The notes under the pieces are model-generated. The model ran no database searches, was not told where the DNA came from, and saw only the letters and a list, made by a program, of their open reading frames with translations. A stretch of 64,000 nucleotides of DNA from Phyllobacterium chamaecytisi (GTDB taxonomy: Bacteria; Pseudomonadota; Alphaproteobacteria; Rhizobiales; Rhizobiaceae), in NCBI RefSeq assembly GCF_020164455.1, contig NZ_JAIQWW010000003.1, forward strand, positions 124,001 through 188,000, in the 5' to 3' direction. How positions within the stretch are numbered: the stretch's first letter is position 1; the number at the start of each line of letters is the position of its first letter. This document shows positions 42,923 to 60,357 of this stretch, piece after piece. Both the position numbers and the translations under genes were made by a program.

Positions 42923-42946
42923 GTTCCGCTATAAAGAACAACGTTC
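42923..42946. promoter_or_regulatory. Composite operator 1: GTTC-n9-GAAC-n3-GTTC
   Basis: GTTCCGCTATAAAGAAC (42923-42939) followed by AAC and GTTC (42943-42946). The same three-part layout occurs near 48865 and 60335. It sits 44 bp upstream of the binding-protein gene. An IclR-type regulator such as the one at 50965-51828 would suit a palindrome plus a third half-site, as in PcaU operators. Confidence 0.65.
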
Positions 42947-43046
42947 CTCTAAAACGAGCTTAGCATTGTGAAGGATGATGTCAACCTGACGCGAGCGCGC
43001 ACACATGCTCACCACCCTGCAGAACCCCTGGAGCAATGTTCTCAAG

Positions 43047-43466
43047 TCAAAGCTGGCTTTTTGGCAATCCCGCCGGCACCACGTGCAGATGTCCGTACCT
43101 TACTGCACGCTCCGAAATGACGTGTTCAGCGAAATGCTGAACCTGGTCCGGCGGTCCTTTGAGGACACCGATTTCGAGGCAGTTGTCATGATCGAGATGG
43201 ACATGCATGCTCGATACAGCAAGTGAATGATGATCATGGAAGGTATTGGTCAACCGGCGTGCAAGATCGCGTGCCCCATGATCGAAGACATAGCTCAGAA
43301 CACCGATCACCTGCGTTGCTGCACCTGTTTCGATTGATGTCAGCTTCATCCCGGCCCTCGCCAGGTCGCGGATGGCCTCGGAGCGATTTTGATAGCCCTT
43401 TGCCGCGATCACCCTGTCGAGTTCCTCCATCAAATCGTCATCGAGGGTGATCGTTATTCTTTGCAT
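43047..43466 (-). CDS. nikR: Nickel-responsive regulator NikR
   Basis: 139 residues from the ATG at 43466, with GGAG seven bases upstream. The ribbon-helix-helix domain is [20 protein letters not shown] to about residue 45. The C-terminal ACT-like domain has the high-affinity nickel ligands in [23 protein letters not shown] (His, His-x-His, Cys). Nickel-loaded NikR represses uptake genes. A NikR-type box lies between it and the divergent nickel permease. Confidence 0.95.
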
Positions 43467-43496
43467 CTTCGGCTCCAAGTTTTTTTAAACGGGCGA

Positions 43497-43524
43497 GTAA
43501 GATTTTTTCGCGTAGACATCATAC
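43497..43524. promoter_or_regulatory. NikR-binding site
   Basis: GTAAGA-n16-TCATAC matches the E. coli NikR operator GTATGA-n16-TCATAC in 11 of 12 positions with exact spacing. It lies between nikR and the NiCoT gene, so it can serve both. Confidence 0.75.
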
Positions 43525-43614
43525 TTTGCGATTTTCTATGGTTGCTTCCGATACAACGGCCCTCTGCGCATGTTTACCAGCACACGCGATACCTGGCCAG
43601 CGGAGGAGGCTTAT

Positions 43615-44667
43615 ATGATCCCCAATCCTTTCGACGATCAGCCGGCGCGGCTGAAGGCCAAGGTCATCGTGACCTATGTCATCCTGATCGCGGCCAACGT
43701 CGGCGCCTGGGCTTGGGCGTGGATTGCCTTTTCCGATCGCCCTTCATTGCTGGGGACTGCTCTTCTCGCCTACATGTTCGGTCTGCGCCATGCTTTCGAC
43801 GCCGATCATATTGCCGCGATCGATAATGTCGTCCGCAAGTTGATGCAGGAGGGCAAGACGCCTTATTCGGTCGGCTTCTTCTTTTCGCTGGGGCACTCAA
43901 GCATCGTCGTCATCGCTTCCCTGATCATTGCCGCGACAGCCGCTGCGATGCAGAGCAATCTTGAATCGTTCCATGATGTCGGCGGTGTCATCGGCACATC
44001 TGTGTCGGCCGTGTTCCTCCTCGTTATCGGCCTGGCCAATCTTTTTATCCTGCGGGGTATCTGGTCAGCTTTCAGCCGCGCGCGGCGCGGCGAGAAAATT
44101 GTCGACGAGGACCTCGACGCACTGCTGTCAGGACGAGGACTCATCGCTCGCATCTTCCGGCCGATTTTCCGCGTGGTTTCGCGGTCCTGGCATATGTATC
44201 CGATCGGCTTCCTGTTCGGGTTGGGTTTCGACACCGCAACGGAAATCGGCCTGCTCGGAATTTCGGCAGCGCAAGCGACGCAGGGCATGTCATTCTGGAC
44301 GATCCTCGTGTTTCCTGCGCTCTTCACAGCGGGCATGTCGCTCATGGACACGACCGATAGCGTCCTGATGACTGGTGCCTATGGTTGGGCGTCGATCAAC
44401 CCCATGCGCAAGCTTTGGTACAATCTGACAATCACCGGAGCGTCTGTCATCGTCGCTGTCTTTATCGGCGGCGTGGAAGCTCTTGGTCTGATCAGCGACA
44501 AGCTCGGACTTCAAGGAGCGTTCTGGCAGTTCGTTGGAGGGCTGAACGATAATCTGGCCAATTTCGGTTATGCAGTCGTCGGTATATTCGTCATGAGCTG
44601 GATCGTTTCGGTCATCGTCTATCGTGCCAAAGGCTATGACAATCTGCACGTCGAAGTATCGGCGTGA
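43615..44667 (+). CDS. NiCoT-family nickel/cobalt permease (HoxN/NixA type)
   Basis: 350 residues from the ATG at 43615, behind GGAGGAGG; a longer frame starts at 43570. The NiCoT signature RHAFDADHIAAIDN near 55-68 carries the metal-selecting His/Asp residues. LGFDTATEIGLL and FPALFTAGMSLMDTTDSVLM are also diagnostic. About eight transmembrane helices are expected. Next to NikR and its box, nickel is the likely substrate, perhaps for urease or hydrogenase elsewhere in the genome. Confidence 0.94.
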   Translation: MIPNPFDDQPARLKAKVIVTYVILIAANVGAWAWAWIAFSDRPSLLGTALLAYMFGLRHAFDADHIAAIDNVVRKLMQEGKTPYSVGFFFSLGHSSIVVIASLIIAATAAAMQSNLESFHDVGGVIGTSVSAVFLLVIGLANLFILRGIWSAFSRARRGEKIVDEDLDALLSGRGLIARIFRPIFRVVSRSWHMYPIGFLFGLGFDTATEIGLLGISAAQATQGMSFWTILVFPALFTAGMSLMDTTDSVLMTGAYGWASINPMRKLWYNLTITGASVIVAVFIGGVEALGLISDKLGLQGAFWQFVGGLNDNLANFGYAVVGIFVMSWIVSVIVYRAKGYDNLHVEVSA

Positions 44668-44675
44668 AACTTTTC

Positions 44676-46196
44676 TCACGCCGGTTCGACTGGTTCGAGA
44701 CCCTTCTGGCCAAGGCCCATATTGGGAAATACCAGTGACTTTATGACGACGGGCACAGCGCCGGACGTTTCGAGCATGGCGCCGATATCAATGAAATCGA
44801 ACTCGTCGAGCTTGATGCCGTCGATCGAGATGATTGAATTGACGCCGTCCGCACTGACGAAATGCATCCCCACCAGTCCCCCGACGTCGCTGTCGCCGAC
44901 GAGGATCAGGGGGTGACCTTTGGCAAGGATCTGTGACAAGCCCTCTCGTATCCCCCGACAGAAATCATCGAGGCGCCTGTAGCTTGCCGATCCCTGCCAT
45001 TCGTAGCAAATGGCCACAGGGCTGTCGCCGTGGGTCAAATCGAGCCGTGCCAGTGCTTCCTTCACCATTAAGCCAACACGTTCGGCGTCGATATCATCAT
45101 CGAATGCGAATGCGGGCTTTATGACGGGAACATTGCGAACGGGCAGGGCATCGAGTGGCCTGACGAAGATCGTACTGCCGCTAACCTGTACAGTATATTG
45201 CGAGGCGCCGACGACGGTCGCCCGGATACCCTGTTCGGGACGTTCAAGGCGCGGCCTCCAGTCGTCGAGCCGCTTGCGCAATTGCCGGGCCAGCAAGGGT
45301 CCGAGATCGCTGAACCCTGCATTGGTATCGGCATAGAGAAATTCCGAAACGCCGCCGGAAATCGTGACTATGTCGGGTGGTGGTCCCGCCGGCAGGGCAG
45401 GCAGGCGATGGAGACCAGCGGTTTCGCTGCGCATTGCGCCACCCTTCATAGCTTCGAACAGGTGGTCGACCATGGACGCCGCGAGTTTTCCGGCATCCTC
45501 GGGCGTGAGAACCGCGCCGAGCACCAACGCCACACCTGCTTGTTTCGCAAAATATTTGCCGGCTTCTTCCAACCGCGTAACCCGCCGGTCAGTATCGAAT
45601 GCGACGACCCGCGCGCCAATGTCGATGGCGCTGATATGGCGGATGGCGCCGTTTTCGCACAGTGCGAGTTTTGAGGTGCCTCCACCGATATCGACGTTCA
45701 GCACGCGCTGGCGTGTTCGGCCGGAAAGAGCGACCGCGCCAGACCCGAACGCAGCCAGAGTGGTTTCGAGGCCGTCCCCCGCGCTGACCACGACAAATTT
45801 GCCGGTCTGCGCCGAAAAGATTTCGCCAATGGCGCGCGCATTGCTGCGCCTGACGGCAACGCCGGTGAGGATGAGCGCCCCCGTGTCGATGTCCTCGGGC
45901 TTCAGGCCGGCGGCTTCGTACTGGGCCTCGAAAAACGATGCGAGCGCCTCCGCGTCGATAGCATCATCGCTGCGATAGGGCGTGAGCAAAACATCGGATT
46001 GATGCAGAAGCGTCCGCTCGACTACCATATAGCGCGTATCGAGACGCTCCAGCACGATGCGGGAGAAGGCGAGGTGAGACGTCGATGATCCAATGTCGAT
46101 ACCGACACTGGTCAACTGTATCTCATCCTCGAGTTCCATACTGCGGCCGATATTGGAGAAGAATATCCGGCCGCCTTCCTCTGGTTCCTCTGACAT
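44676..46196 (-). CDS. EutA-like protein (ethanolamine ammonia-lyase reactivating factor family)
   Basis: 506 residues from MSEEPEEGG at 46196; a longer frame overlaps the bicupin gene. It is an actin-fold ATPase of EutA type: phosphate-1 motif VGIDIGSSTSHLAFSRI near 32-48, LNVDIGGGTSKLALC near 178-192, and ISGGVSEFLY near 285. EutA frees inactive cobalamin from EutBC. No EutBC or other B12 enzyme is found here, and its neighbour is a bicupin, so its partner is unclear. Its C-terminal 90 residues (VGDSDVGGLVGMHFVS) are intact. Confidence 0.82.
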   Translation of the reverse strand: MSEEPEEGGRIFFSNIGRSMELEDEIQLTSVGIDIGSSTSHLAFSRIVLERLDTRYMVVERTLLHQSDVLLTPYRSDDAIDAEALASFFEAQYEAAGLKPEDIDTGALILTGVAVRRSNARAIGEIFSAQTGKFVVVSAGDGLETTLAAFGSGAVALSGRTRQRVLNVDIGGGTSKLALCENGAIRHISAIDIGARVVAFDTDRRVTRLEEAGKYFAKQAGVALVLGAVLTPEDAGKLAASMVDHLFEAMKGGAMRSETAGLHRLPALPAGPPPDIVTISGGVSEFLYADTNAGFSDLGPLLARQLRKRLDDWRPRLERPEQGIRATVVGASQYTVQVSGSTIFVRPLDALPVRNVPVIKPAFAFDDDIDAERVGLMVKEALARLDLTHGDSPVAICYEWQGSASYRRLDDFCRGIREGLSQILAKGHPLILVGDSDVGGLVGMHFVSADGVNSIISIDGIKLDEFDFIDIGAMLETSGAVPVVIKSLVFPNMGLGQKGLEPVEPA

Positions 46197-46209
46197 TGAA
46201 ATTAGCTGC

Positions 46210-47448
46210 TCAGACGACGGTGGACATTTTTTTCGTCGTGTCATCCGGCGTGACGTACCATTCCGGCTTCATACGGATTTCGACCCCATTGCGGTTCAGC
46301 TTCTCCTCATATTCCTTGCGGATATAGGGGTCTTCCATCCAGTACGGGATAGCCGTGCCGCCTTCATTGACGTCGATTGCGGTATAGTCGGTGTGCTTTT
46401 CACCAGGAGCGCCGGGATCGCGGCCAGGATTATGCGGGCCGAACCACGCCATCAGGCGGAAAGGCTCCTTGGAAACACTGAAGTGCTGATGATACCAGCG
46501 CGCACCACCCGGGGCGGCGGACACCATGCCGAAAGGACCGTAATCAAGGCGCTTGATCTTGTCGGCATGGCCATCCCTCCAGGGATTGACGCCGTATTCT
46601 TCGGGCCAGGTATAGGTGTAGCCTTCGCCTTTCAGGCAGATCAGAATTGCCGCCGACGTATGTGCGTGCGCTTTCGAATAACGGCCATTCTCATGCTGGC
46701 CGATCCAGTAGTAGAAGGTGTTGTTGGTCATGAACGGCTCAACGCGGCGGTAACCTGGCGAGCGTCTGTTGTCGAGCGGCAGTTCGCAATTGACGGCGTC
46801 TGGCATGAAGTTGGTCCGCCGCATGGCGAGCCCGCGAACGGGGTCAGGCTCGATTTCCTCGCGATACTTGTAAAAGTCGTCGGCTCCGGAAAAACGGTCG
46901 CGGAAGACATATGGGTTGTTGAAAACCGCATCGGCATTCTGGATCTGGTTGAGGACGTTCGGCGCCGTTGTTCCGCCAAGCAGAAGTGCCGGACTGTTGG
47001 TTGCGTTGACGATCCGATGCATGGCGTTCATCGGTATCGAGAACATCGACCCTTCCTGCCATTCGAAGACGTGTTTGCGACCTTCGCCCTCGAGCCACAC
47101 CTCGGTGGAGCCGCGTCCTTCGACGACGATGTATATTTCCTCAAACATGTGCTTTTCCGGATGAAGCGCGCCCGCCGCTGGCACCTCCACCAGATGACAA
47201 CCCCATTTGGTTTCTGTCCCAAGCAGCTGAATATAAGTGCCGCGTCCGCCGGTACGCTTCCACGGTTTCAAGGGAAGGTTTTTGACACTCGATACCCCAA
47301 GGTCGCGAAAGACAGGAATACCTTCTTCCACCATGAACTGATCATAGGGGGTTGGCTGCTTCTTGAACTCACCGAAACCGGCTTTCTTCGTGCCAGCGGG
47401 TTCGTGCCAGTGGGTGCCGGTGCCGCCGCCTAATGGATCCTGGTGCAT
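46210..47448 (-). CDS. Bicupin protein, possible ring-cleavage or other metal-dependent dioxygenase
   Basis: 412 residues from the ATG at 47448 behind GGAGGAA. Two cupin domains are visible. The first, near 75-145, has PAAGALHPEKHMFEEIYIVV with metal-type His, His, Glu. The second, near 240-320, has GRYSKAHAHTSAAIL with His-x-His, then ARWYHQHFSVSKEP. Layout resembles gentisate/1-hydroxy-2-naphthoate dioxygenases, but motifs differ and substrate is unknown. It is followed 13 bp later by the EutA-like gene. As the region lacks a recognised ring-cleavage enzyme, it is a candidate for that step. Confidence 0.72.
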   Translation of the reverse strand: MHQDPLGGGTGTHWHEPAGTKKAGFGEFKKQPTPYDQFMVEEGIPVFRDLGVSSVKNLPLKPWKRTGGRGTYIQLLGTETKWGCHLVEVPAAGALHPEKHMFEEIYIVVEGRGSTEVWLEGEGRKHVFEWQEGSMFSIPMNAMHRIVNATNSPALLLGGTTAPNVLNQIQNADAVFNNPYVFRDRFSGADDFYKYREEIEPDPVRGLAMRRTNFMPDAVNCELPLDNRRSPGYRRVEPFMTNNTFYYWIGQHENGRYSKAHAHTSAAILICLKGEGYTYTWPEEYGVNPWRDGHADKIKRLDYGPFGMVSAAPGGARWYHQHFSVSKEPFRLMAWFGPHNPGRDPGAPGEKHTDYTAIDVNEGGTAIPYWMEDPYIRKEYEEKLNRNGVEIRMKPEWYVTPDDTTKKMSTVV

Positions 47449-47608
47449 TGATTCCTCCTGTCGATGCATTTCCGCTGCGCCTGAAGCGCTCGCGGATGTA
47501 ATATTTGCGTCAGCCTACCAGCTGCTCGGAGCGGCGGTAGCTTGATTTCGGAAAGACCATCTTTCCGGTTTTGTCCGGGCAGGGGACGTCAGCCCCCGCT
47601 GGCGTTTT

Positions 47609-48391: not shown

Positions 48392-48467
48392 AATCCCTCC
48401 CGTCGTGTTTCTAATAAAATCCCATATTATACAAATCTGTTATGCCCGCGATATCACATATGCTTTA

Positions 48468-48791
48468 CACCTCGATCATCACGTCGTCGTTCTCGACGAC
48501 CACTTTGTAGGTTCGCACGGGTACCATGCAGGGTGGGGCGACGACCTCGCCGGTGCGAAGATCGAATGCACCATTGTGAAAATCGCATTCGATCGTATGG
48601 CCGTCGATATATCCTTCCGACAGCGAGCCCGGGCCGTGGGTGCAGGCATCGTCTGTCACGTAGAACGTCCCATTGACGTTGAAAACGGCCAGCACGAGAT
48701 CGCCGGATTCGACTCTGATGGCGCTGTCGAAATCAACATCATCCGCAGAACAAAGCCTTATCCTCGAACGCGTTTGCGTCATCTGGTCCAT
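48468..48791 (-). CDS. Rieske [2Fe-2S] ferredoxin
   Basis: 108 residues from the ATG at 48791, behind GAAAGGA; the longer open frame reads through the divergent promoter. The Rieske ligands are CTHGPG (Cys50, His52) and CDFHNG (Cys69, His72). It is a small soluble electron carrier, typical of three-component ring-hydroxylating oxygenases, and is divergent from the oxygenase gene at 48999. The stop is at 48465-48467. Confidence 0.92.
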
Positions 48792-48864
48792 ATCCTTTCT
48801 CCCTGCTGCCGCCGCGCGCTTGACTAGCTCGCCAACAGCCTGTAGTTTTCTAAAACGAAACAGC

Positions 48865-48881
48865 GTTCTGTATAAAGGAAC
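48865..48881. promoter_or_regulatory. Composite operator 2 in the Rieske divergent promoter
   Basis: GTTCTGTATAAAGGAAC is GTTC-n9-GAAC. Read on the minus strand, it continues with three bases and GTTT, like the other two sites. It lies between the Rieske ferredoxin (minus) and Rieske oxygenase (plus) genes and could control both. Confidence 0.65.
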
Positions 48882-48998
48882 GCGATGCAAGAATAACCGA
48901 TCAGAGCGGGACGTCAACTCGAAACTGACGATTAACGTTCTGGCTCGGCCAAACAGCAGCCGGATTTCGTCGCGATTGGACGATTCGAGGAGGATTGA

Positions 48999-50285
48999 AT
49001 GCTTAGAAAAGAACAAAACGACCTTCTGACGCAGACTGGCCCAGCCACACCCATGGGCGACATGTTTCGCTGCTACTGGATACCGGCGCTGCTTGCGGAA
49101 GAACTGCCGGCCAATGATTGTCCGCCGGTTCGCATAAAACTGCTCAGCGAACGTTTGCTGGCGTTCCGGGATAGCGAAGGCCGCTATGGATTGATCGACG
49201 AGTTTTGTGCCCACCGGGGTGTTTCATTGTGGTTTGGCCGCAACGAGAAGGGCGGATTGCGCTGCCCCTATCACGGCTGGAAGTACGACCACACGGGTCA
49301 ATGTATCGAGGTGCCGTCGGAACCCAAGGAAAGCGGCTTCTGCAACAAGATCAAGCTGAAGTCTTATCCACTCATCAAGATCGGCGATATTCTCTGGACC
49401 TATATGGGGCCAGCCGACAAAGAGCCGCCGCATCCGGAATGGGAATTTGCGCTTGTGCCGCCTGAGCAGACGTTCACATCGAAGCGCTGGCAGGAGTCGA
49501 ACTGGTTGCAGGCCATGGAAGGCGGCATCGATTCGAGCCATGTTTCCTTCCTTCATAGCGGAAGTCTCAACAGCGACCCGCTGTTCAAGGGTGCCCGCGG
49601 CAACAAATACAATATGGCAGACTCCAAGCCATTTTTCGAAGTCACGGACAATGAAGGCGGACTATTCATCGGCGCCCGCAGGAATGCCGAGGAAGGCCAC
49701 TATTACTGGCGTGTAACGCCGTGGGTCATGCCGTCGTTCACCATGGTGCCGCCGCGCGGCAACCATCCTGTCCATGGCCATTTCTGGATCCCGATCGACG
49801 ACGAGAATTGCTGGGCGTGGAGCTTCGACTACCACCCAGTCCGGGCTCTGACGCCCGAAGAGCGCCAGGCAATGCTCGACGGCAAGGGCATTCATGTCAC
49901 ATACGTTCCTGGAACCTTCCGTCCCGCCGCCAACAAGGACAATGATTATCTCATGGATCGCGAGGCCCAGCGTCTTGGCGTAACCTATTCCGGCGTCGAA
50001 GGCATCGCCATGCAGGATGCCTCATTGCAGGAAAGCATGGGACCCATCGTCGACCGGACAAAGGAAAACCTGGTATCGACGGATAACGGGATCATCATGG
50101 CGCGTCACCGTTTGCTGAAGGCTGTCCGGGCATTCAAGGACAAAGGTATTACCCCTCCGGGTGTCGATCCTGCCCACCACCGCGTGCGGTCGGCGGCTGT
50201 CGTGTTGCCTGTCGATCAGTCTTACATCGATGCAGCCGCCGAAGCGTTGACAGTGATTGAGGGGAAAGCGCCGGCCTCTGTCTGA
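48999..50285 (+). CDS. Rieske non-haem iron ring-hydroxylating oxygenase, phthalate 4,5-dioxygenase-like
   Basis: 428 residues behind GAGGAGGATTGA. The Rieske motifs are CAHRGVSL near 68 and CPYHGWKYD near 89. The mononuclear iron site is GGIDSSHVSFLHSG near 178-191, with the Asp-x2-His-x4-His pattern. Length and motifs fit the single-subunit phthalate dioxygenase/oxygenase family (PDO, OhbB, VanA-like). It should hydroxylate or demethylate an aromatic acid with electrons from the local reductase and ferredoxin. The exact substrate is inferred only from the 4,5-dihydroxyphthalate-type decarboxylase nearby. Confidence 0.92.
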   Translation: MLRKEQNDLLTQTGPATPMGDMFRCYWIPALLAEELPANDCPPVRIKLLSERLLAFRDSEGRYGLIDEFCAHRGVSLWFGRNEKGGLRCPYHGWKYDHTGQCIEVPSEPKESGFCNKIKLKSYPLIKIGDILWTYMGPADKEPPHPEWEFALVPPEQTFTSKRWQESNWLQAMEGGIDSSHVSFLHSGSLNSDPLFKGARGNKYNMADSKPFFEVTDNEGGLFIGARRNAEEGHYYWRVTPWVMPSFTMVPPRGNHPVHGHFWIPIDDENCWAWSFDYHPVRALTPEERQAMLDGKGIHVTYVPGTFRPAANKDNDYLMDREAQRLGVTYSGVEGIAMQDASLQESMGPIVDRTKENLVSTDNGIIMARHRLLKAVRAFKDKGITPPGVDPAHHRVRSAAVVLPVDQSYIDAAAEALTVIEGKAPASV

Positions 50286-50319
50286 GCCACGGTGACGGTC
50301 CGTTCCAAAGGAGAACGAT

Positions 50320-50841
50320 ATGCAGCTTGGTCTCAGTGAAAGTGCGCGCGCTACCACGGCAGAGGAAGCCCGGTTCAGAATTGGTTACCCCAATTCCAGG
50401 CCGAGGAAGTCGCGCATCATTGCTCTCGATTCTGACAGCGTCGCGGCTCTGAAGTCGTTGGTGGATCAAGCTTCGGATGGTGCCCACTTTCTGCGATATA
50501 TCGAACCAAAGGGCGCTACGAACTCGCTGAAAATGTTGTCGGTCGATGCAATACTCGAGGATATTGATGGAAAGCGGACCAATCTCGTCGACGAAATTGC
50601 CGACGCGGATGTTATCGTCATGGTCACATCCGCCGGAGCATCGGCTGAAGCCGCCGAGGTAATCGGCAACGCCTGTTTCGTGCGCAGCAAGATGACCACA
50701 GGTCTGGTCCTCAATTCGGCCAGCGTTCCTTCCGAACAGTTGAAGCGGACATTGACCACGATGCGTCCCTTCGCGGCAATGCTCGTTGTTTCGACGGGCG
50801 CTGAATATGTCAGCGAAATGCTGAGCGCGTTGCGAGTTTGA
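50320..50841 (+). CDS. Unrecognised 173-residue protein in the Rieske operon
   Basis: 173 residues behind AAAGGAG. No named family was recognised. Alternating hydrophobic strands (SRIIALDSDSVAALKSL, DADVIVMVTSAGASAEAAEVIG) suggest a small alpha/beta, Rossmann-like fold; there are no membrane segments and one Cys (GNACFV). It sits 35 bp after the Rieske oxygenase and before the IclR gene, so it probably serves the same pathway. A lyase, isomerase or accessory role is open. Confidence 0.75.
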   Translation: MQLGLSESARATTAEEARFRIGYPNSRPRKSRIIALDSDSVAALKSLVDQASDGAHFLRYIEPKGATNSLKMLSVDAILEDIDGKRTNLVDEIADADVIVMVTSAGASAEAAEVIGNACFVRSKMTTGLVLNSASVPSEQLKRTLTTMRPFAAMLVVSTGAEYVSEMLSALRV

Positions 50842-50964
50842 GATGCTGCTGCCAAGGGACGGAGATATTGGCACTAGCATGACCGGGGGTGGTGGGTTCC
50901 AAAGGAATTCTGGTCTCGGAATGGCTATCGAATGGGTGGTCTGGGAAATTGCGAGGGCTGTGTT

Positions 50965-51828
50965 ATGAACGGCACTGTTGTCCACGCGATCAAACGGAAT
51001 GCTGAACCCATGAACCCACCTTCCAAAGACACGTCCAGTTCAAAGAAAACGCCATCGTCCAAGCGCAATCGGCTGTCGTCCGTCACGACGGCAATACGGT
51101 TGCTGAAAGCCTTTTCAGAAGACGAGGTGGAGATCGGCGTCAGCGCATTGGCATTGAAGCTGAAGGTGGCAAAGAGCACCGTTCATCGCCTTGCCGTGAC
51201 ATTGGTTTCGGAAGGGCTGCTGGAGCAAAACCCGGAAACCGAGCGCTACAAACTCGGGGTCGGGTTATTCGGTCTTGGGACGCTTGTACGCCGGCGTATG
51301 AATGTTTCCAATGAAGCGCGCCCGTTTCTTTTCGACCTGCGCAAACACACCGGCGAAACCATCATCCTCGGCATCCCGACAGACATCGAAATCATGCATG
51401 TCTATGATCTGGAAAGCCCGCAGGCATTGTCGATAAAATCGGATCTCGGCGTCCGCCGCCCCGCACATTGCACGGCAGTCGGTCGCGCTATCTTTGCATT
51501 CGCCCCGGAAGAGACGATCGAACACGTTCTGGCAGGACCGCTCGCCCGCCGTACGCCGCGTACGCCGGTCGATCCCAAGCAGATACGGAAGATATTCGCC
51601 GAAGTCCGTGAGCGCGGTTATGCCATTGAAGACGAGGAAAGCGAACCGGGGATCCGGGTCATCGCTGCACCGGTCCGGGATTCAAATGGTGTGGTCGTCG
51701 CTGCTGTCGGGATTGGCGGACCCTTGCAGAGATTGTCGATCGAGGCGCTCGAAGGGTTTGCACCACCACTTTTGGAAACCGTTGCAGCGATATCGGCGCG
51801 TCTCGGATACTCCGCAAGGCATCGATAG
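50965..51828 (+). CDS. IclR-family regulator of the aromatic-acid cluster
   Basis: About 287 residues from the ATG at 50965 (starts at 50932 or 51010 are also possible). A Ser/Lys-rich N-terminus precedes the winged helix-turn-helix (TAIRLLKAFSEDEVEIGVSALALKLKVAKSTVHRLAVTLVSEGLLEQN). The IclR effector domain has ARPFLFDLRKHTGETIILG and GVRRPAHCTAVGRAIFAF. IclR proteins of aromatic pathways (PcaU, PcaR, PobR) often activate with an aromatic effector. It is the best candidate to bind the three GTTC composite sites. Confidence 0.9.
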   Translation: MNGTVVHAIKRNAEPMNPPSKDTSSSKKTPSSKRNRLSSVTTAIRLLKAFSEDEVEIGVSALALKLKVAKSTVHRLAVTLVSEGLLEQNPETERYKLGVGLFGLGTLVRRRMNVSNEARPFLFDLRKHTGETIILGIPTDIEIMHVYDLESPQALSIKSDLGVRRPAHCTAVGRAIFAFAPEETIEHVLAGPLARRTPRTPVDPKQIRKIFAEVRERGYAIEDEESEPGIRVIAAPVRDSNGVVVAAVGIGGPLQRLSIEALEGFAPPLLETVAAISARLGYSARHR

Positions 51829-51849
51829 GCAGAAATGGGAAGCCCACGC

Positions 51850-52860
51850 ATGGCAGTCATCACGCTGAATGGAAGCGACCTCCGCTGGGAGTGCGACGAA
51901 GGCGACACGATCATGCGATCGGCACTACGGGCGGGACTGGGCTTTCCCTATGAGTGCAATGTCGGGTCATGCGGCAATTGCCGCTTCGATCTCGTTGAAG
52001 GTGAAATCGAAGAATTGCGTGCGGATCCGCCGGGCTTGAGTGAACGTGATCGTGCGCGCGGCCGCCGCTTGGGCTGCCAGGCCAGCCCCTTGTCCGATTG
52101 TGCCGTCAAGTTGCGGCTGATGCCGCAGTATGAGAGCCTGTTCAGGCCGCAACGCCAGGCTGCGACCTTGGTTGCAACGTCCGACATCACGCATGACATC
52201 CGGGAGTTTCGCTTCCGGTCAGAGGCAACGAGCCGGTTCCTTTCAGGTCAATATGCCTTGCTGCATCTGCCCGAGGTGCCAGGCGGTCGCGCCTATTCGA
52301 TGGCGAATACCAGCAATGATGGCGGAGAATGGCACTTTCAGATACGCCGTGTGCCGGGCGGCGAGGCAACAGGATACTTGTTCTCGCAACTGCGCGTTGG
52401 GGATCGTATCGAGCTCGATGGCCCCTATGGCATGGCATATCTTCGCGAGAACTCGCCGAGGGATATCGTTTGTATTGCCGGCGGTTCGGGGCTTTCACCG
52501 ATGGTGTCGATCACGCGCGCGGCGGCTGTTGCACCGAGCCTTGCCGGAAGACGCATAGACTTCGTCTTCGGCGGTCGCACGGCGCAGGATATTTGCGGCA
52601 AGGAAATGCTGCAAATGCTACCGGGATTTGGTACAAATATTCACTACCATCCGGTCGTTTCCGGCATGCCTGAAGCCGATGATGGCTGGGATGGTTACAG
52701 AGGCTATGTCCATGAAGTCGCTCATAGTCTTTTCGCCGCACGGCTTCCTTCGTGCGAGATCTATTTTGCAGGTCCCCCCGCAATGGGACAAGCAATACAG
52801 AAAATGCTGGTCGATCTTGGTGTCGACTCAACCCAAGTGCATTTTGACCAGTTCTATTGA
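51850..52860 (+). CDS. Oxygenase reductase: plant-type [2Fe-2S] ferredoxin fused to FAD/NAD(P) reductase
   Basis: 336 residues from the ATG at 51850 (51835 is possible). N-terminal ferredoxin ligands are CNVGSCGNC near 33-41 with the fourth Cys in GCQ near 76. The FAD motif is GRAYSMAN near 145, and the NAD(P) region has CIAGGSGLSPM near 207. The C-terminus VHFDQFY is typical. It passes electrons from NAD(P)H to the Rieske system. The IclR gene ends 21 bp earlier. Confidence 0.93.
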   Translation: MAVITLNGSDLRWECDEGDTIMRSALRAGLGFPYECNVGSCGNCRFDLVEGEIEELRADPPGLSERDRARGRRLGCQASPLSDCAVKLRLMPQYESLFRPQRQAATLVATSDITHDIREFRFRSEATSRFLSGQYALLHLPEVPGGRAYSMANTSNDGGEWHFQIRRVPGGEATGYLFSQLRVGDRIELDGPYGMAYLRENSPRDIVCIAGGSGLSPMVSITRAAAVAPSLAGRRIDFVFGGRTAQDICGKEMLQMLPGFGTNIHYHPVVSGMPEADDGWDGYRGYVHEVAHSLFAARLPSCEIYFAGPPAMGQAIQKMLVDLGVDSTQVHFDQFY

Positions 52861-54182: not shown

Positions 54183-54211
54183 AAGCTGATTTAGTACCGG
54201 ATTTTCGAGGC

Positions 54212-55198: not shown

Positions 55199-55209
55199 AC
55201 GGCATCAAT

Positions 55210-56064
55210 TTACTTGGGAATCGCCTGCAGAAAATCGAGCACCTTGGCATTGCAGTTTGCCGCACTCTGCTCAGGGACGGGCATATCCCAATAGTCTGAT
55301 CCCGGGATGCATTCCTGCAGATACCGCGCAGCGGAAGTTGAATGCGACGCGTCGGCGCCGGGAATGATCAACGTCGGAATGTCGAGACACAGCAGGTCTT
55401 CAGGTTCGGCACCGGGGGACGTATCGCGATCGAGCAACGTTCGCACCATCCCGGCCACGATGGCCTTGTAGTGGTCGACGTTGAGCCGCGCATATTCGGC
55501 CGCAAAATCGGGAAAATTGCGGATGACCGATACCCAGGGACCGCCTCTCGGATCTGCACCAAAGGCCTTGTTGCTTTCCTTCGCCAGGCTGACGACAGCC
55601 GCAAGCCCGTTCTGGTTGACGAAAGCGAGGTGTTCGGCAAACCGCTGGTGGCCGGTCATGCGATATCTAGCCCCGCCAACCGGCCAGAACAGGATCATAC
55701 TTAGCGTCTTTTCGGGGTAGGTCGCACCGAAGGCGGAAACTGCGCTGCAGCCCATGCACCCGCCCATCATATGGGCCTTGTCGATGCCGAGATGGTCGAG
55801 CAAGCCCTTGCCCTGTTCAACATAATGCGCCCAGGTAACCCGCTCGACGCGCCCGCCTGATTGGCCGGTTTCGCGCCTGTCGAAAACGATGCAGCTGTAC
55901 TTCTTGGAAAGTTGGTCCAGAAATTTGATCTGCGCATAAATACCCTGGGTGGACCACTTCTCGATCGTCGCGTCGAAACCGCCCGGCGAATACATGAGCA
56001 AGGGCTCACCCGAGCCGACAACTTCATAGCGCGTCGATATTCCGTCGATCGTGGCCGTCGCCAT
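55210..56064 (-). CDS. Alpha/beta hydrolase with cysteine nucleophile
   Basis: 284 residues from the ATG at 56064, behind AAGGAG. The hydrolase core is visible: oxyanion region LLMYSPGGFDATIEKW, DRRETGQSGG, and the nucleophile elbow GGCMGC near residue 100, where Cys replaces Ser. An acid is likely in IIPGADASH. No His sits at the usual place in the last 30 residues. A Cys nucleophile recalls dienelactone hydrolase, so hydrolysis of a lactone or ring-fission product is possible. It is in operon with the RraA-type aldolase. Confidence 0.85.
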   Translation of the reverse strand: MATATIDGISTRYEVVGSGEPLLMYSPGGFDATIEKWSTQGIYAQIKFLDQLSKKYSCIVFDRRETGQSGGRVERVTWAHYVEQGKGLLDHLGIDKAHMMGGCMGCSAVSAFGATYPEKTLSMILFWPVGGARYRMTGHQRFAEHLAFVNQNGLAAVVSLAKESNKAFGADPRGGPWVSVIRNFPDFAAEYARLNVDHYKAIVAGMVRTLLDRDTSPGAEPEDLLCLDIPTLIIPGADASHSTSAARYLQECIPGSDYWDMPVPEQSAANCNAKVLDFLQAIPK

Positions 56065-56066
56065 TT

Positions 56067-56744
56067 TCAAACTCCTTCGCAACCGAGTCGCTTCAGGCTT
56101 TCGTCGACCCAAAGTTTGGGATCAAGCTTGCCCGCAAGCGTATTGGCAACCGTTTTTAGTTCCGCTTCGTGCTTGGCCTTGGCGAGCGGGTAGATTTCGC
56201 CCGTCAGTTCGTACGGAACACAGAGCAGTCCGTCATCATCGCCCATGATCAGATCGCCCGGATTGATGACCATGCCATCGAGCGAGATCGGCACGTTGAT
56301 TTCGCCCGGACCGTCCTTGTAGGGACCGCGATGCGTGATGCCTGCTGCAAAAACCGGGAAGCTGTTGTTCTTGATCCAGCCATAGTCGCGAACGGCGCCA
56401 TTTATCACAACGCCGGCAACGCCGATCTGTATGGCGTGCGAAAGCATCATCTCGCCGACAAGCGCATTTGACAACTCTCCACCGGCATCGACGACAATCA
56501 CGTCGCCGGGCTTCGCCATCAACAGCGCCTTGTGAATCATCAGATTATCGCCGGGCCGGGTCTTTACCGTGAAAGCCGGTCCCGCCAAAGGCCCGCCTGC
56601 GTGCAACGGGCGGAGATTCGGTCCGCCCGCGGTCAGCCGCGACATGACATCGCTGACATTGGCCACCGGTAATTCGCGAAATTGCCTGACAGTCTGTTCG
56701 TCAACCCTGCGTGTTCGTTCGAGTATTCGGAATCCATGTGCCAT
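56067..56744 (-). CDS. RraA-family protein, probable 4-carboxy-4-hydroxy-2-oxoadipate aldolase type
   Basis: 225 residues. Family features are VIVVDAGGELSNALVGEMM near 85-103, INGAVRDYGWI with the Arg-Asp pair near 124, and GDDDGLLCVPYE near 180 (metal site). In this family HMG/CHA aldolases split 4-carboxy-4-hydroxy-2-oxoadipate to pyruvate and oxaloacetate. The LigJ-type hydratase in the same gene group makes that substrate, which supports the call over an RNase E regulator. It is two bases upstream of the hydrolase gene. Confidence 0.87.
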   Translation of the reverse strand: MAHGFRILERTRRVDEQTVRQFRELPVANVSDVMSRLTAGGPNLRPLHAGGPLAGPAFTVKTRPGDNLMIHKALLMAKPGDVIVVDAGGELSNALVGEMMLSHAIQIGVAGVVINGAVRDYGWIKNNSFPVFAAGITHRGPYKDGPGEINVPISLDGMVINPGDLIMGDDDGLLCVPYELTGEIYPLAKAKHEAELKTVANTLAGKLDPKLWVDESLKRLGCEGV

Positions 56745-56782
56745 GGCGGTGTTCCTTTCCAGATTCTTATGAGATATCGAGA

Positions 56783-57892
56783 CTATTCCCAGGGTAGCAA
56801 TGAGGCATGGATCACATCGGGCACGCCGTGTCCGCCGACGGACTGGATGGCAAGGGCCGCGTCCTTCAACCCGAAACGATGGGTCGTGATTTTTTCGAGA
56901 TCGAAACGTTTGGAGGCGATCTGTTCGAGAGCAAGTTCACACGCCTGATAGCTGTGGCCTCGGGCACTCTTGAGCGTGATCGCCTTGACGGTCATCTTCT
57001 CGAGGGGGAAGTTCGGAAATTCCTTCATTTCGCCCTGAACGAGAATGGTGCCGGCTTTACGCACCAGAGCCTCCACGCCTAGCAGGATCGGAATCGTACC
57101 GGCACCCGCCGTACAATCGAGTGAGACATCAACACCTTTTCCGCCCGTAATCTCCATGATGCGGGCAAGCGGGTCTTCTTTGTGCACGTCAATGACGTAG
57201 TCGGCTCCAAGTGACTTTGCCACTTCGAGTCGCGCTGCGTCCTTGGTGGTTCCGGTGACGATGATGAGCGAAGCGCCCGCCTGCTTGCATATGACGGTCT
57301 GCGAAAGCCCTTGCTGACCAGGCCCCTGGATAAGTACCGTGGAATTATAGCCGACATTGGAATCGAAAAGCGACCACTCGACGCCGTTGGCCATGGGCGT
57401 TACCAGGCCTGCAAGTTCGGGTGTCACCCCGGCCGGAACGCGGTGCACCACGGCATTCCACGGCAGATAGACGTACTGCGCAAAGCCTCCCCAGAGGTGC
57501 GGAGCGCGTTCTGCACTGGTGTAGCCATAGCGGATCCCGTCCGGATTATTGCGCCAATCGGTATTTTCGCAATGCCGGTACTGACCCTGATGACACCATT
57601 TGCATTTGCCGCACATGACATAATGCTCGACGAACACCAGGTCGCCTTCCTTGAAGCCCTTGCGCCGGGTGAATTCACGGCCGGCCTTGGCGATATAGCC
57701 GATGTTTTCATGGCCCATTATGGTCGGGGCGTTTGAAGGCGGCGTTTTGAACAGCTTCACGTCGGTCCCGCAAATACCTGCCACTTCCATCTTCAGCAGC
57801 GCCGCGTCTTCAGGAATATCCGGCATCGGATATTCGCGAATCTCCATCTGGCTTGGCCCGGTGCGGACGGCCGCTAAGACTTGTTCTGTCAT
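56783..57892 (-). CDS. Zinc-dependent alcohol dehydrogenase (MDR superfamily)
   Basis: 369 residues from the ATG at 57892, behind GGAG. Catalytic zinc motifs GICGTDVKLF near 37-46 and MGHENIGYIAKAG near 58. Structural zinc cysteines are in CGKCKWCHQGQYRHC near 95-110. A Rossmann domain follows (QGPGQQGLSQTVICKQ, CTAGAGTIP). It oxidises an alcohol or reduces an aldehyde with NAD(P). Within this operon it may act on a hydroxylated or aldehyde intermediate of the aromatic pathway. Confidence 0.9.
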   Translation of the reverse strand: MTEQVLAAVRTGPSQMEIREYPMPDIPEDAALLKMEVAGICGTDVKLFKTPPSNAPTIMGHENIGYIAKAGREFTRRKGFKEGDLVFVEHYVMCGKCKWCHQGQYRHCENTDWRNNPDGIRYGYTSAERAPHLWGGFAQYVYLPWNAVVHRVPAGVTPELAGLVTPMANGVEWSLFDSNVGYNSTVLIQGPGQQGLSQTVICKQAGASLIIVTGTTKDAARLEVAKSLGADYVIDVHKEDPLARIMEITGGKGVDVSLDCTAGAGTIPILLGVEALVRKAGTILVQGEMKEFPNFPLEKMTVKAITLKSARGHSYQACELALEQIASKRFDLEKITTHRFGLKDAALAIQSVGGHGVPDVIHASLLPWE

Positions 57893-58045
57893 TTCAAACT
57901 CCCTGGAAGTTCTCGTCGCTGACTGGCGAACATGCAAGTTCTGTCAGCGCTGCGGTTCTGCGTTCAGTTTTGACAAATTCGCGTTTGTCATTCTATTTAG
58001 ATGTCCGGTACCGGCAGCATTTGCGCCGGCCCTCAGGTTGAAACC

Positions 58046-58342
58046 ATGCTCAAATCCGCTATTCCCGACCGCGAAAAACTTACCGCAATCAGGCGCGTAA
58101 AGACCTGGACGGCGGAACGTTTCAGTCTTTCGGACGACATGACGGTCTCGGTGATGGAGGTCGCTTGCGGGTTGCCCGGATGCCCGCCGCTCGAAACCAT
58201 CGTGACATTCTGGACTACGAGCGATAGCCGGCACGCATTCAAGGTGTTCAAACCCATCCGCGAGGTTACGCCGGAAGACTTGCCGCCGTCGTGGATGAAG
58301 CAGGCCATCGTCTCGAATGACGATGACCTGTCCTGCTGCTGA
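58046..58342 (+). CDS. Small Cys-containing conserved protein, function unknown
   Basis: 98 residues from the ATG at 58046 (a longer frame starts at 58001). The pattern is recognisable from other rhizobia: AERFSLSDDMTVSVMEVACGLPGCPPLETIVTFW, then RHAFKVFKPI, PEDLPPSWMKQAIV and a Cys-Cys end. Four Cys could bind metal. It is transcribed against its neighbours, between the alcohol dehydrogenase and LigJ-like genes. Confidence 0.7.
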   Translation: MLKSAIPDREKLTAIRRVKTWTAERFSLSDDMTVSVMEVACGLPGCPPLETIVTFWTTSDSRHAFKVFKPIREVTPEDLPPSWMKQAIVSNDDDLSCC

Positions 58343-58358
58343 GCGCGGTGGCCCCATC

Positions 58359-59402
58359 TTAGTTTACCGGCTTGGCGGGATACCCGCGTTTCGTCAGCTG
58401 CGCGTCAAGGCGCGGATAGACCCGCCGTGCATTGCCTTCAAAAATCTTGTAGCGGCTTAACTCGTCCAGTGTCGCAAGCTGGTCGATATAGCGCTTCGTG
58501 TCGTCATAGTAATGACCGGTTTCCGGATCGATGCCCTTAACCGCGCCCAGCATTTCCGAGGCGAATAATATGTTGTCGACCGGGATGACCTTGGCCATCA
58601 ATTCGATCCCTGGATAGTGGTAGACACATGTGTCGAAGACGACATTCTTCAAAAGGTGGTCGGCCAGCAGCGGTTTCTTCATCTCCTGCGCAAGACCGCG
58701 ATAACGGCCCCAATGGAAGGGTACTGCGCCGCCTCCATGGGGTATGACGAATTTCAGCGTCGGAAAGTCCTTGAAAAGATCGCCCTGTATGAGCTGCATG
58801 AAGGCTGTCGTATCGCCGTTGATGTAGTGCGCGCCCGTGTGATGGAAGTTTGGGTTACACGATGAAGTCACGTGGATCATCGCTGGCACGTCGAGTTCAC
58901 ACAGCTTTTCGTAAAGCGGATACCATTGAGGATCGGTCAGCGGCGGATCCGTCCAGTAGCCACCGGACGGGTCGGGATTAAGATTGATGCCGATGAATCC
59001 GAGCTCGTTAACGAGTCGCTCCAGCTCCGGAATGCAGTTCTTTGGGGGAGATCCGGGATGCTGCGGCAATTGACCGACGGCAGCAAAATTATCGGGGAGT
59101 AACTGGCAGATCCGGTGGATCAAGTCGTTGGAAAGCGTTGTCCACTGCATGCTGACAGCTTCGGTTCCCACATGGTGTGCCATGCCCGCGGCGCGCGGCG
59201 AAAAGATCGTCAGGTCGCTGCCGCGTTCCCGTTGCAGCTTGAGTTGCGGCTCGACGGACTGGCGTAGCATGTCATCGGTGATACCGAGATCCGTGCTCGT
59301 CGGGCGCCGCATCGGATCAGCGAGGCCGGCCAGCTGTTTGTCCCTGAACTGGTGCAGTGCCTGGGGTTCGGTGGTGTAGTGACCGTGAATGTCGATGATC
59401 AT
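58359..59402 (-). CDS. ligJ: 4-oxalomesaconate hydratase, LigJ type (amidohydrolase superfamily)
   Basis: 347 residues. The amidohydrolase metal motif is DIHGHYTT at the N-terminus. Long stretches recall LigJ from Sphingobium: RERGSDLTIFSPRAAGMAHH, NLNPDPSGGYWTDPPL, HYINGDTTAFMQL, FVIPHGGGAVPFHWGR, ASEMLGAVKGIDPETGHYYD. LigJ hydrates 4-oxalomesaconate to 4-carboxy-4-hydroxy-2-oxoadipate in the protocatechuate 4,5-cleavage and gallate pathways. The RraA-type aldolase nearby would take the next step. It is 32 bp after the decarboxylase-like gene. Confidence 0.85.
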   Translation of the reverse strand: MIIDIHGHYTTEPQALHQFRDKQLAGLADPMRRPTSTDLGITDDMLRQSVEPQLKLQRERGSDLTIFSPRAAGMAHHVGTEAVSMQWTTLSNDLIHRICQLLPDNFAAVGQLPQHPGSPPKNCIPELERLVNELGFIGINLNPDPSGGYWTDPPLTDPQWYPLYEKLCELDVPAMIHVTSSCNPNFHHTGAHYINGDTTAFMQLIQGDLFKDFPTLKFVIPHGGGAVPFHWGRYRGLAQEMKKPLLADHLLKNVVFDTCVYHYPGIELMAKVIPVDNILFASEMLGAVKGIDPETGHYYDDTKRYIDQLATLDELSRYKIFEGNARRVYPRLDAQLTKRGYPAKPVN

Positions 59403-59434
59403 GAAAATTGCCCAAGAATGAAGTTGCGTTGGAT

Positions 59435-60298
59435 TCAGATTTTCCAGAAGAGCTCATCGACGTCGTAGGGTCGTGAACTGAGCCTTTGGTCGAAGGCGTA
59501 GTCGAGCAGTGTCTGCATCGGCTTGCGCGTCGCTTCCAGTCCGTAGGGCAAAGCAGCAGTCCCCTTGGCACCGGATTTCTGCCGCGCCTCCTCAAAGAGC
59601 GCCATCAGTTCACCGCCAAGCCAGGGATGCTGTTCGAGAAGTTCCTTCCTGACAGAGACGATGTGGTTGACCGGGAAGATCCCCGTCTTCTCGGACCATT
59701 TCAGTGCTGCATCCTCTGCATTCCGTATGACAGGCCGCACATCGGCGGGATCGACATTGCGTTCACCCATGATTGCTGCAAGTTCGCCCGACAGCAGGAG
59801 TTCGCGCAGACCCTTGCCGCTGGTGTTGCGGACCGCATTTTCCGGATCCCTGTATTCGGCGACATGGGCATCCTCCATGGTTACCCATGTGATGCGATTG
59901 AAGTCCACGCCATATTCCGATTTGAGGATTCCGCGGATCCAGACACCCGTGGTCTGTGTATAGGCGCGCACGCCAACCTTCTTGTCCTGAAGTACGGCGG
60001 GATCGCCGAGGTCAGATCCTGCGGCACAAACCAGATTGTCATGGTGGAGGCGGCGCCAAAGCGGAATCGGAAGCGCTGTAATGGGTTTGCCCAGGTCGAC
60101 GGCAACCAGATGCGTGGTCAGGGCCATTTCGCTCACGTCGAGATCCCCGCCGCGGACCATCGTCCGAAAAGCGTTCGGAAGCGGATCGAACTCCTCAAAC
60201 TGCAGTTTGAGACGTGGCGATTTTACGCTGCCATCCTTGAGCGGCCGCACGTGATCGTGCTTGCCGAGGGCTATGCGTAATACCAGTGGTTCGACCAT
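59435..60298 (-). CDS. 4,5-dihydroxyphthalate decarboxylase-like protein
   Basis: 287 residues from the ATG at 60298, behind GGGAGGAGG; no signal peptide, so it is cytoplasmic despite a binding-protein fold. Features of the Pht5 family: LRIALGKHDHVRPLKDG near 6-22, LDVSEMALTTHLV near 62-74, GVRAYTQTTGVWIRGIL near 118-134. In phthalate breakdown it turns 4,5-dihydroxyphthalate into protocatechuate. It is first in the leftward operon; the third composite operator is 37 bp upstream. Confidence 0.8.
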   Translation of the reverse strand: MVEPLVLRIALGKHDHVRPLKDGSVKSPRLKLQFEEFDPLPNAFRTMVRGGDLDVSEMALTTHLVAVDLGKPITALPIPLWRRLHHDNLVCAAGSDLGDPAVLQDKKVGVRAYTQTTGVWIRGILKSEYGVDFNRITWVTMEDAHVAEYRDPENAVRNTSGKGLRELLLSGELAAIMGERNVDPADVRPVIRNAEDAALKWSEKTGIFPVNHIVSVRKELLEQHPWLGGELMALFEEARQKSGAKGTAALPYGLEATRKPMQTLLDYAFDQRLSSRPYDVDELFWKI

Positions 60299-60334
60299 TT
60301 CTGCCTCCTCCCGCAGCTTCAAAAAAGATAGCAT

Positions 60335-60357
60335 GTTCTTCTATAAGGAACTGCGTT
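60335..60357. promoter_or_regulatory. Composite operator 3 before the decarboxylase-like gene
   Basis: GTTCTTCTATAAGGAAC (60335-60351), then TGC and GTTC (60354-60357). Layout and central TATAA match the sites at 42923 and 48865. Confidence 0.65.

What the first reader, a model, noticed from the sequence alone, without database searches (positions are those of the whole stretch)
42923..60357. Three-copy composite operator defines a hidden regulon across the aromatic-acid region
GTTC-n9-GAAC followed by n3-GTTY occurs at 42923, 48865 (other strand) and 60335. In each case it sits in a promoter: the orphan binding protein, the divergent Rieske ferredoxin/oxygenase pair, and the 4,5-dihydroxyphthalate-decarboxylase-like operon. 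The spacers share TATAA-like centres. A palindrome plus a third half-site is the known layout of IclR-type aromatic regulators such as PcaU. The IclR gene at 50965-51828 lies in the middle. This links genes spread over 18 kb and around an unrelated nickel locus.
Basis: partly seen in the sequence, partly recalled or inferred. Interest (0 to 1): 0.75.

Follow-up and report, generated by a model that had tools for sequence, protein, structure and literature searches.

The report
IclR-type three-box operator regulon
A repeated DNA switch sits on the start points of several gene sets for breaking down an aromatic acid, and comparison with relatives points to a nearby IclR-type regulator as its reader; the layout is a known one, so this is a new example rather than a new kind of switch.

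Summary
GTTC-n9-GAAC-n3-GTTY occurs three times in the window (0.03 expected) and nowhere else in the 6.36 Mb genome. The genus is Phyllobacterium (inferred). Read in gene direction, all three sites have TTGAC 45 nt upstream of the 17-bp palindrome and a -10-like hexamer 16-17 nt further on, so the operator covers about -10 to +26, a repressor position (inferred). The third half-site is one arm of a second, weaker palindrome 20 bp away. The centre site also has a divergent promoter. Among 29 loci with IclR relatives, 21 hold the exact three-box site; 28 of 42 hits over spacings 0-13 have spacing 3. A DNA-only search of 297 genomes found 22 sites outside this genome, all within 11 kb of an IclR gene and 18 within 1 kb. 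Nine of the 21 site-bearing loci show neither local LysR. Two near-matches elsewhere in the genome, one before a paralogous EutA/cupin operon, may extend the regulon. Three-box and tandem IclR operators are already published (PMC8222616), so this is a new member of a known kind. Binding, effector and substrate are untested.

The parts
42923..42946 (+). Operator A, three-box site GTTC-n9-GAAC-n3-GTTC. With the second, degenerate palindrome (42943-42959) the full site is 42923-42959.
   Evidence: present in 4 of 4 genomes of the genus sample that have the IclR orthologue
42923..42984 (-). Promoter-operator module A: TTGACA-n16-TAAGCT, then operator, reading towards the binding-protein gene
41114..42879 (-). 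Transcription unit A: NMT1-type binding protein (41842-42879) and class II aldolase (41114-41797)
   Evidence: Pfam PF13379/PF09084 and PF00596; one transcription unit is inferred from spacing
48858..48881 (-). Operator B, three-box site; with the second, degenerate palindrome (48845-48861) the full site is 48845-48881
48820..48881 (+). Promoter-operator module B towards the oxygenase: TTGACT-n17-TAGTTT, then operator
48865..48917 (-). Divergent promoter B' towards the ferredoxin: TTGACG-n16-TATTCT, then the same palindrome
   Evidence: similar divergent TTGAC at 34-36 nt in L079-L085
44676..48827 (-). Transcription unit B': Rieske ferredoxin (48465-48827), class II aldolase (47609-48391), cupin protein (46210-47469), EutA-like protein (44676-46244)
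   Evidence: Pfam; one transcription unit is inferred
48999..52860 (+). Transcription unit B: Rieske oxygenase (48999-50285), 173-aa protein without Pfam match (50320-50841), IclR regulator (50932-51828), reductase (51835-52860)
   Evidence: Pfam; same gene order in L077-L085; one transcription unit is inferred
50932..51828 (+). IclR-family regulator, proposed reader of the operators; autoregulated if unit B is one transcription unit
   Evidence: PF01614 E=1.6e-40, PF09339 E=1.7e-12
60335..60358 (+). Operator C, three-box site; with the second, degenerate palindrome (60355-60371) the full site is 60335-60371
60335..60396 (-). Promoter-operator module C: TTGACC-n16-TATTAT, then operator
55210..60334 (-). 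Transcription unit C: 4,5-dihydroxyphthalate-decarboxylase-like protein (59435-60334; likely start ATG at 60298, read from the sequence), 4-oxalomesaconate-hydratase-like amidohydrolase (58359-59402), 137-aa protein (57944-58357), zinc dehydrogenase (56783-57937), RraA-type protein (56067-56744), alpha/beta hydrolase (55210-56112)
   Evidence: one transcription unit is inferred

Best explanation
A strong 17-bp palindrome (GTTC-n9-GAAC) and a weak one 20 bp away lie about two DNA turns apart, so two dimers, or one tetramer, can cover about -10 to +26 and block RNA polymerase or promoter escape. An aromatic acid or pathway intermediate would release the protein. Because the iclR gene lies inside unit B, the repressor limits its own supply. 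Shown here: the sites, their fixed distance to promoter-like hexamers, their conservation, and their link to IclR genes. Inferred: the start points, binding, repression, tetramer use, the effector and the transcription units.
For: Three exact sites in the window and none elsewhere in the genome. In all three, TTGAC starts 45 nt before the palindrome and a TANNNT hexamer lies 16-17 nt after the TTGACN hexamer. Over 37 distinct TTGAC-linked sites, 30 have TANNNT at spacing 16-18, and 37 of 37 match TATAAT in at least 3 of 6 positions, against 24% of random positions. In 29 loci with IclR relatives, GTTC-n9-GAAC followed by GTTY at spacing 3 occurs 28 times in 21 loci; the 13 other spacings from 0 to 13 total 14. 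Of the 8 loci without the exact composite, 6 have their best matrix hit within about 220 nt upstream of the matched IclR segment. A DNA-only family search found 27 sites in 22 of 297 genomes against 1 reversed-control hit; all 22 sites outside the window's genome lie within 11 kb of an IclR gene, 18 within 1 kb, while the genomes have 2-14 IclR_C matches each. In the genus sample all 4 genomes with the IclR orthologue carry A, B and C, and none of the other 16 does. In an order-wide search for the bare three-box pattern, 5 of 10 sites outside this genome have an IclR gene within about 1.5 kb and 3 more belong to this cluster type.
Against: No binding, expression or start-point data exist here. 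The genome has 13 IclR_C matches, so a paralogue cannot be excluded. The -10 hexamers of A and B are weak (TAAGCT, TAGTTT), which would also suit an activated promoter. The reversed pattern occurs as often genome-wide as the composite alone. In Beijerinckiaceae loci L088 and L092-L096 the third box lies on the other side of the palindrome relative to the TTGAC promoter. L086 and L104 have no convincing site, and L087, L089 and L091 score below every training site. Of eight other genomes of the order with an oxygenase relative, five lack the exact three-box pattern. Two order-wide sites (one locus of G530) have no IclR within the 3-kb stretch. Many sites are related by descent, so they are not independent.
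Confidence: 0.75

Rival explanations
1. The same IclR protein binds the sites but acts as an activator, or as a dual regulator, rather than as a plain repressor.
For: Weak -10 hexamers at A and B. IclR proteins include activators and dual regulators (PMC8222616). Activation by P. putida PcaR from sites at -35 and -10 is recalled, not read here.
Against: The palindrome begins 45 nt downstream of the TTGAC start in all three units, so it lies at and after the inferred start point. PheR, an IclR repressor, protects +23 to -21 (PMC13273656).
Confidence: 0.18
2. Another of the genome's IclR proteins reads the sites, or shares them with the local one.
For: 13 IclR_C matches in the genome. A related operator type lies beside other IclR genes in many genera of the family and order. 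Seven Rhizobium/Sinorhizobium-type loci (L079-L085) carry a second, weakly similar IclR-like gene.
Against: The sites track this orthologue: 4 of 4 genomes of the genus sample with it carry A, B and C, against 0 of 16 without it. In distant lineages the site stays near this relative, although those loci were fetched through it.
Confidence: 0.1
3. One of the two LysR proteins (52897-53847 or 54263-55198) reads the sites; TTC-n9-GAA is also a T-n11-A LysR box.
For: The geometry fits (recalled), and both genes are in the cluster.
Against: Of 22 stretches from the DNA-only search, 11 show a LysR similar to these two and none has it within 1 kb; LysR query scores were low, so distant LysR genes may be missed. 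Of 21 three-box loci, 9 show neither LysR, among them L088, L092, L095 and L105, which have the full 10-kb flanks. A position on the start point does not suit a LysR activator (recalled).
Confidence: 0.03
4. The three sites are a chance resemblance picked out by eye.
For: The pattern was chosen after seeing the sites; the reversed pattern gives 3 hits genome-wide.
Against: 0.03 expected in the window; fixed promoter spacing; conservation outside the genus and the spacing-3 peak.
Confidence: 0.01

Closest known systems
IclR three-box and tandem operators, GTT-11-AAC subgroup (Suvorova and Gelfand 2021, PMC8222616)
   Same: 17-bp GTT...AAC palindrome; third box alternating in direction, so that GAAC-n3-GTTC resembles their group 2 consensus; second palindrome 20 bp away, within their 18-22 nt range.
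   Different: Rieske, EutA and Rhizobi- do not occur in their main text.
PcaU / PobR of Acinetobacter
   Same: Palindrome plus external direct half-site; aromatic-acid genes (PMC8222616).
   Different: The listed PcaU core is two bases shorter between the arms. The protein here is far below the PcaR/PcaU/PobR family cut-off (147 against 285 bits).
IphR of Comamonas sp. E6 (isophthalate)
   Same: IclR protein with a palindrome and an additional half-site; aromatic dicarboxylate use (Table 1 of PMC8222616).
   Different: Different arm sequence (GTCTCATCAGAC, half-site ATGGAC).
PheR of Sphingobium sp. SHPJ-2 (PMC13273656)
   Same: IclR repressor whose 44-bp footprint spans +23 to -21 of an aromatic-degradation operon, close to the position inferred here.
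   Different: Different operator sequence (core GCAACG) and substrate (phenanthrene).
BhcR
   Same: Best NCBIfam match of the protein (167 bits).
   Different: The cut-off is 350 bits, so it is not filed as a BhcR.

Membership tests
IclR-family regulator (protein 50932-51828) | N-terminal HTH_IclR and C-terminal IclR_C domains | tested here: met
   PF09339 47.4 bits (cut-off 22), PF01614 139 bits (cut-off 24)
PcaR/PcaU/PobR family | Score above the TIGR02431 cut-off | tested here: not met
   146.9 against 284.75 bits
BhcR | Score above the NF045644 cut-off | tested here: not met
   166.7 against 350 bits
KdgR | Score above the NF011671 cut-off | tested here: not met
   150.5 against 275 bits
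IclR three-box operator (PMC8222616) | Palindrome of the GTTYCRYW3RYGRAAC type | tested here: met
   GTT-11-AAC arms in all three sites; the inner positions fit only loosely
IclR three-box operator (PMC8222616) | Third box alternating in direction at fixed spacing | tested here: met
   Spacing 3 in all three sites; 28 of 42 hits over spacings 0-13 in 29 related loci
IclR tandem operator (PMC8222616) | Second palindrome with centres 18-22 nt apart | tested here: inconclusive
   20 nt in all three sites, but the second palindrome is degenerate: 3 of 4 arm pairs complementary at A, 4 of 4 at B, weakest at C (read from the alignment)
IclR operator | Bound by the IclR protein | not testable with these tools
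   needs gel shift or footprint
LysR operator | Linked to a LysR gene across genomes | tested here: not met
   11 of 22 stretches with a similar LysR, none within 1 kb; 12 of 29 cluster loci with one

The most novel reading that the evidence does not exclude
One IclR protein runs an undescribed aromatic-dicarboxylate pathway (Rieske oxygenase, 4,5-dihydroxyphthalate-decarboxylase-like protein, 4-oxalomesaconate-hydratase-like enzyme, RraA-type protein, plus EutA-like and cupin proteins of unknown role). It uses three-box operators in which the third box can be RAAC or GACC, and the GACC form has carried the regulon as a 65-bp promoter module to a second EutA/cupin operon elsewhere in the genome.
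Probability: 0.35. Interest if true: 0.5.

Novelty: new member of a known kind. Interest (0 to 1): 0.36.

Why it matters
It proposes a reader, a promoter map and a testable gene list for an aromatic-acid cluster found in several alphaproteobacterial families and one Pigmentiphaga genome. It ties EutA-like and cupin proteins, whose names suggest other roles, to that pathway. It also gives a compact set of natural three-box sites, with variant third boxes, for testing the published proposal that some IclR proteins dimerise in two alternative ways.

Tried and rejected
LysR as reader: considered because TTC-n9-GAA is a T-n11-A box; judged unlikely on gene linkage. The TATA spacer as the -10 element: considered first, because TATA is at the centre of all three palindromes; dropped when TTGAC at constant distance with its own -10 hexamer appeared. 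Palindrome core alone with up to 2 mismatches: 255 hits against 426 for the reversed control, so it has no power at that tolerance; only the first places were listed. Of the 14 one-mismatch core sites shown there, the surroundings of four were fetched (C1:607879, C4:129352, C10:105377, C16:76362). Two of these were displayed with 50-nt flanks, and neither has TTGAC upstream on either strand (C1, C4, read by eye); the other two were not pursued. Substrate: paper searches for a dipicolinate cluster (one unrelated paper) and for the enzyme combination (none) gave nothing useful, so it stays open. Prior report of this regulon: nothing recognisable in the listings (titles and starts of abstracts), but the supplementary tables of PMC8222616 could not be read and most subscription journals are not held. 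Papers: PMC8222616, parts 1, 2, 3 and 5 of 8 plus a term search; PMC13273656, passages only; the others, search listings only.
Full report
CHECK OF THE OBSERVATION. The pattern GTTC-n9-GAAC-n3-GTTY is present at 42923-42946 (+), 48858-48881 (-) and 60335-60358 (+), with 0.03 matches expected from 100 shuffles. In the 6,358,476-base genome these are the only three exact matches; the reversed control also has three, so the count alone is unremarkable and the clustering is what matters. With up to two mismatches, the refined pattern RAACNNNGTTCYNYATANNRGAAC has seven places in the genome: the three sites at 0 mismatches, two at 1 (C2:4576, C17:90261) and two at 2; the reversed control has six in all.

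ANATOMY. Each has TTGAC starting 45 nt before the 17-bp palindrome, and a hexamer TAAGCT (A, spacing 16), TAGTTT (B, 17) or TATTAT (C, 16) after TTGACN. Taking TTGACN as the -35 hexamer, the operator covers about -10 to +26. In gene sense the third half-site is the inner arm of a second, weaker palindrome (GCTC-n9-GAAC at A, GTTT-n9-AAAC at B, TATG-n9-GAAC at C), centred 20 bp from the first. Site B also has a promoter facing the other way, TTGACG-n16-TATTCT, whose TTGAC starts 36 nt before the palindrome, so one operator can serve the ferredoxin side and the oxygenase side.

GENES. Unit A is an NMT1-type binding protein and a class II aldolase. Unit B is a Rieske oxygenase with LigXa-type C-terminal domain, a 173-aa protein without a Pfam match, the IclR protein and a reductase. 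Unit B' is ferredoxin, class II aldolase, cupin protein and EutA-like protein. Unit C begins with a protein similar to a solved chain named 4,5-dihydroxyphthalate decarboxylase (9jp7, E=9e-28). It continues with an amidohydrolase close to 4-oxalomesaconate hydratase (2gwg, E=5.6e-161), a 137-aa protein without a Pfam match, a zinc dehydrogenase, an RraA-type protein and an alpha/beta hydrolase. The RraA-type protein scores 316 bits for PRK06201 (cut-off 231) and is below the cut-offs of the named 4-carboxy-4-hydroxy-2-oxoadipate aldolases. The oxygenase is nearest to chains named Rieske domain protein (9ina) and putative phthalate 4,5-dioxygenase (7fhr). Aromatic dicarboxylate breakdown through a 4-oxalomesaconate step is the likely theme; this is inference and the substrate is open. 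A nickel regulator and transporter (43047-44667) lies between units A and B'.

CONSERVATION IN THE GENUS. Four of the 20 genomes searched, this one included, have the IclR orthologue at 97% identity or more. All four have sites A, B and C with the TTGAC module and none of the other 16 does; three of those 16 (G008, G011, G018) have one site each of a different type. The reversed control is 0 in all 20.

CONSERVATION BEYOND THE GENUS. One search returned 68 IclR loci from named genomes. I analysed the 29 best (L077-L105; L077 and L078 are Phyllobacterium) and used 38 distant ones (L106-L143) as a contrast, leaving out L144, a 25-residue match. Palindrome arms at spacing 9 occur 35 times in the 29 loci, against 5-25 for the other spacings from 3 to 16. 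A third box at spacing 3 occurs 28 times in 21 loci; the other 13 spacings from 0 to 13 total 14, of which 12 are at spacings 6 and 8. The distant loci have 2 at spacing 3, in one locus, and 1 at spacing 7. Of the eight loci without the exact composite, six (L087, L089, L091, L098, L099, L103) have their best matrix hit (17.2 to 27.4) within about 220 nt upstream of the matched IclR segment. Three of these six are below the weakest training site (23.0). L086 and L104 have nothing above 11.5. Carriers of the exact site include Rhizobium, Sinorhizobium, Beijerinckiaceae, Devosia, Pigmentiphaga and Rhodobacteraceae. In L101 and L102 the site again precedes a relative of the unit C decarboxylase-like gene. 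Fetching these loci by their IclR gene makes the presence of IclR in them a given; the independent test is the DNA-only search below.

PROMOTER HEXAMERS. Over 37 distinct TTGAC-linked sites (window, L079-L105, L062, L065, L066; near-duplicates L077 and L078 left out), 30 have TANNNT 16-18 nt after TTGACN. All 37 match TATAAT in at least three positions, against 24% of random positions scored the same way. The sites are related by descent, so this is a description and not a probability.

WHICH PROTEIN. The pattern TTGACN{37,43}GTTCYNYATANNRGAAC was searched in 297 genomes of the family as DNA only: 27 sites in 22 genomes, 1 reversed-control hit. I fetched stretches around all 22 sites outside this genome. 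An IclR gene (phmmer with the window protein, E up to 1e-4) is in the fetched stretch in 21 of 22, and within 1 kb of the site in 18. For L065 it lies in the adjoining stretch L066, about 10.7 kb away. Distances are to stop-to-stop frames. The 22 genomes, this one included, hold 2-14 IclR_C matches each, so chance would rarely give this. A LysR similar to the two local ones is in 11 of 22 stretches and never within 1 kb; the LysR queries scored weakly, so distant LysR genes may have been missed. Of the 21 three-box loci, 9 show neither local LysR. Five of these 9 are cut by contig ends, while L088, L092, L095 and L105 have full 10-kb flanks.

ORDER-WIDE SEARCH. The bare three-box pattern in 397 genomes of the order has 13 sites in 10 genomes against 1 control hit. 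Of the 10 sites outside this genome, 9 have TTGAC within 45 nt upstream, 5 have an IclR gene in the 3-kb stretch, and 3 lie beside relatives of this cluster's genes (oxygenase/ferredoxin in L171 and L177; dehydrogenase and decarboxylase-like gene in L172). The remaining 2, one locus of G530, have neither in the 3-kb stretch. Against the reading: eight other genomes have an oxygenase relative at E up to 1e-120, and five of them lack the exact pattern.

POSSIBLE EXTENSION. The two one-mismatch sites have GACC as third box. They share a 65-bp module, 86% identical, that ends with the palindrome. The C2 site precedes paralogues of the EutA-like (41% identical) and cupin (33%) proteins; no IclR gene was found in the 20 kb fetched there. 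G009 has two such modules, G017 one and G019 none; none of the 16 genomes without the IclR orthologue has one. In G034, a cluster with the IclR and oxygenase relatives has three GGACC-type sites beside a RAAC-type site, which suggests that the same protein reads both. This is plausible, not shown.

COMPARISON WITH WHAT IS KNOWN. Suvorova and Gelfand (PMC8222616; parts 1, 2, 3 and 5 of 8 read) describe a GTT-11-AAC subgroup of IclR operators, three-box sites in 32 orthologous groups, and tandem sites 18-22 nt apart in 94 groups. They also state that PcaU, PobR and HmgR have an additional external half-site. The present operator has these features, with a degenerate second palindrome, so it is a new member of a known kind. 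PheR (PMC13273656; passages read) is an IclR repressor protecting +23 to -21, close to the position inferred here. The protein itself is below the curated cut-offs for BhcR, KdgR and PcaR/PcaU/PobR, so it belongs to the IclR family but is not filed under those named groups.

VERDICT. Binding, effector and substrate are untested.

Noticed in passing
L014/L076 4576-4638 and L015 5261-5325 (G000 C2 and C17): A 65-bp promoter-operator module, 86% identical between two contigs; one copy precedes EutA/cupin paralogues. Behind the other, the first ORF of 150 aa or more is about 390 nt away (3516-4871, a cyclase-domain protein).
   Followed up: partly
L054, L056-L060, L063, L064, L067-L075: A related but distinct promoter-operator type (roughly ATAATTCC..ATAGTcAAA..GTTCCAYATAATGGAAC) lies beside, or overlaps the upstream end of the stop-to-stop frame of, other IclR genes in many genera of the family; it looks like another autoregulated IclR regulon.
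   Followed up: partly
L170/L179 (G530 C2:83568-83722): Two three-box sites on opposite strands, about 130 nt apart, each with TTGAC upstream and no IclR or cluster gene in the 3-kb stretch.
   Followed up: no
L079-L085: These seven Rhizobium/Sinorhizobium-type loci carry a second, weakly similar IclR gene (34-45 bits) next to the aldolase gene, absent from the window's cluster.
   Followed up: no
window 11204-11713: A second, distant IclR_C match lies in the same window (E=5.5e-11), about 31 kb from the nearest site.
   Followed up: no
window 50320-50841: A 173-aa protein without a Pfam match keeps its place between the oxygenase and IclR genes in L077-L085.
   Followed up: no
window 44676-47469: EutA-like or cupin relatives are found in 15 of the 29 IclR loci, not in L079-L083; EutA is named for ethanolamine use and its role here is unknown.
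   Followed up: no
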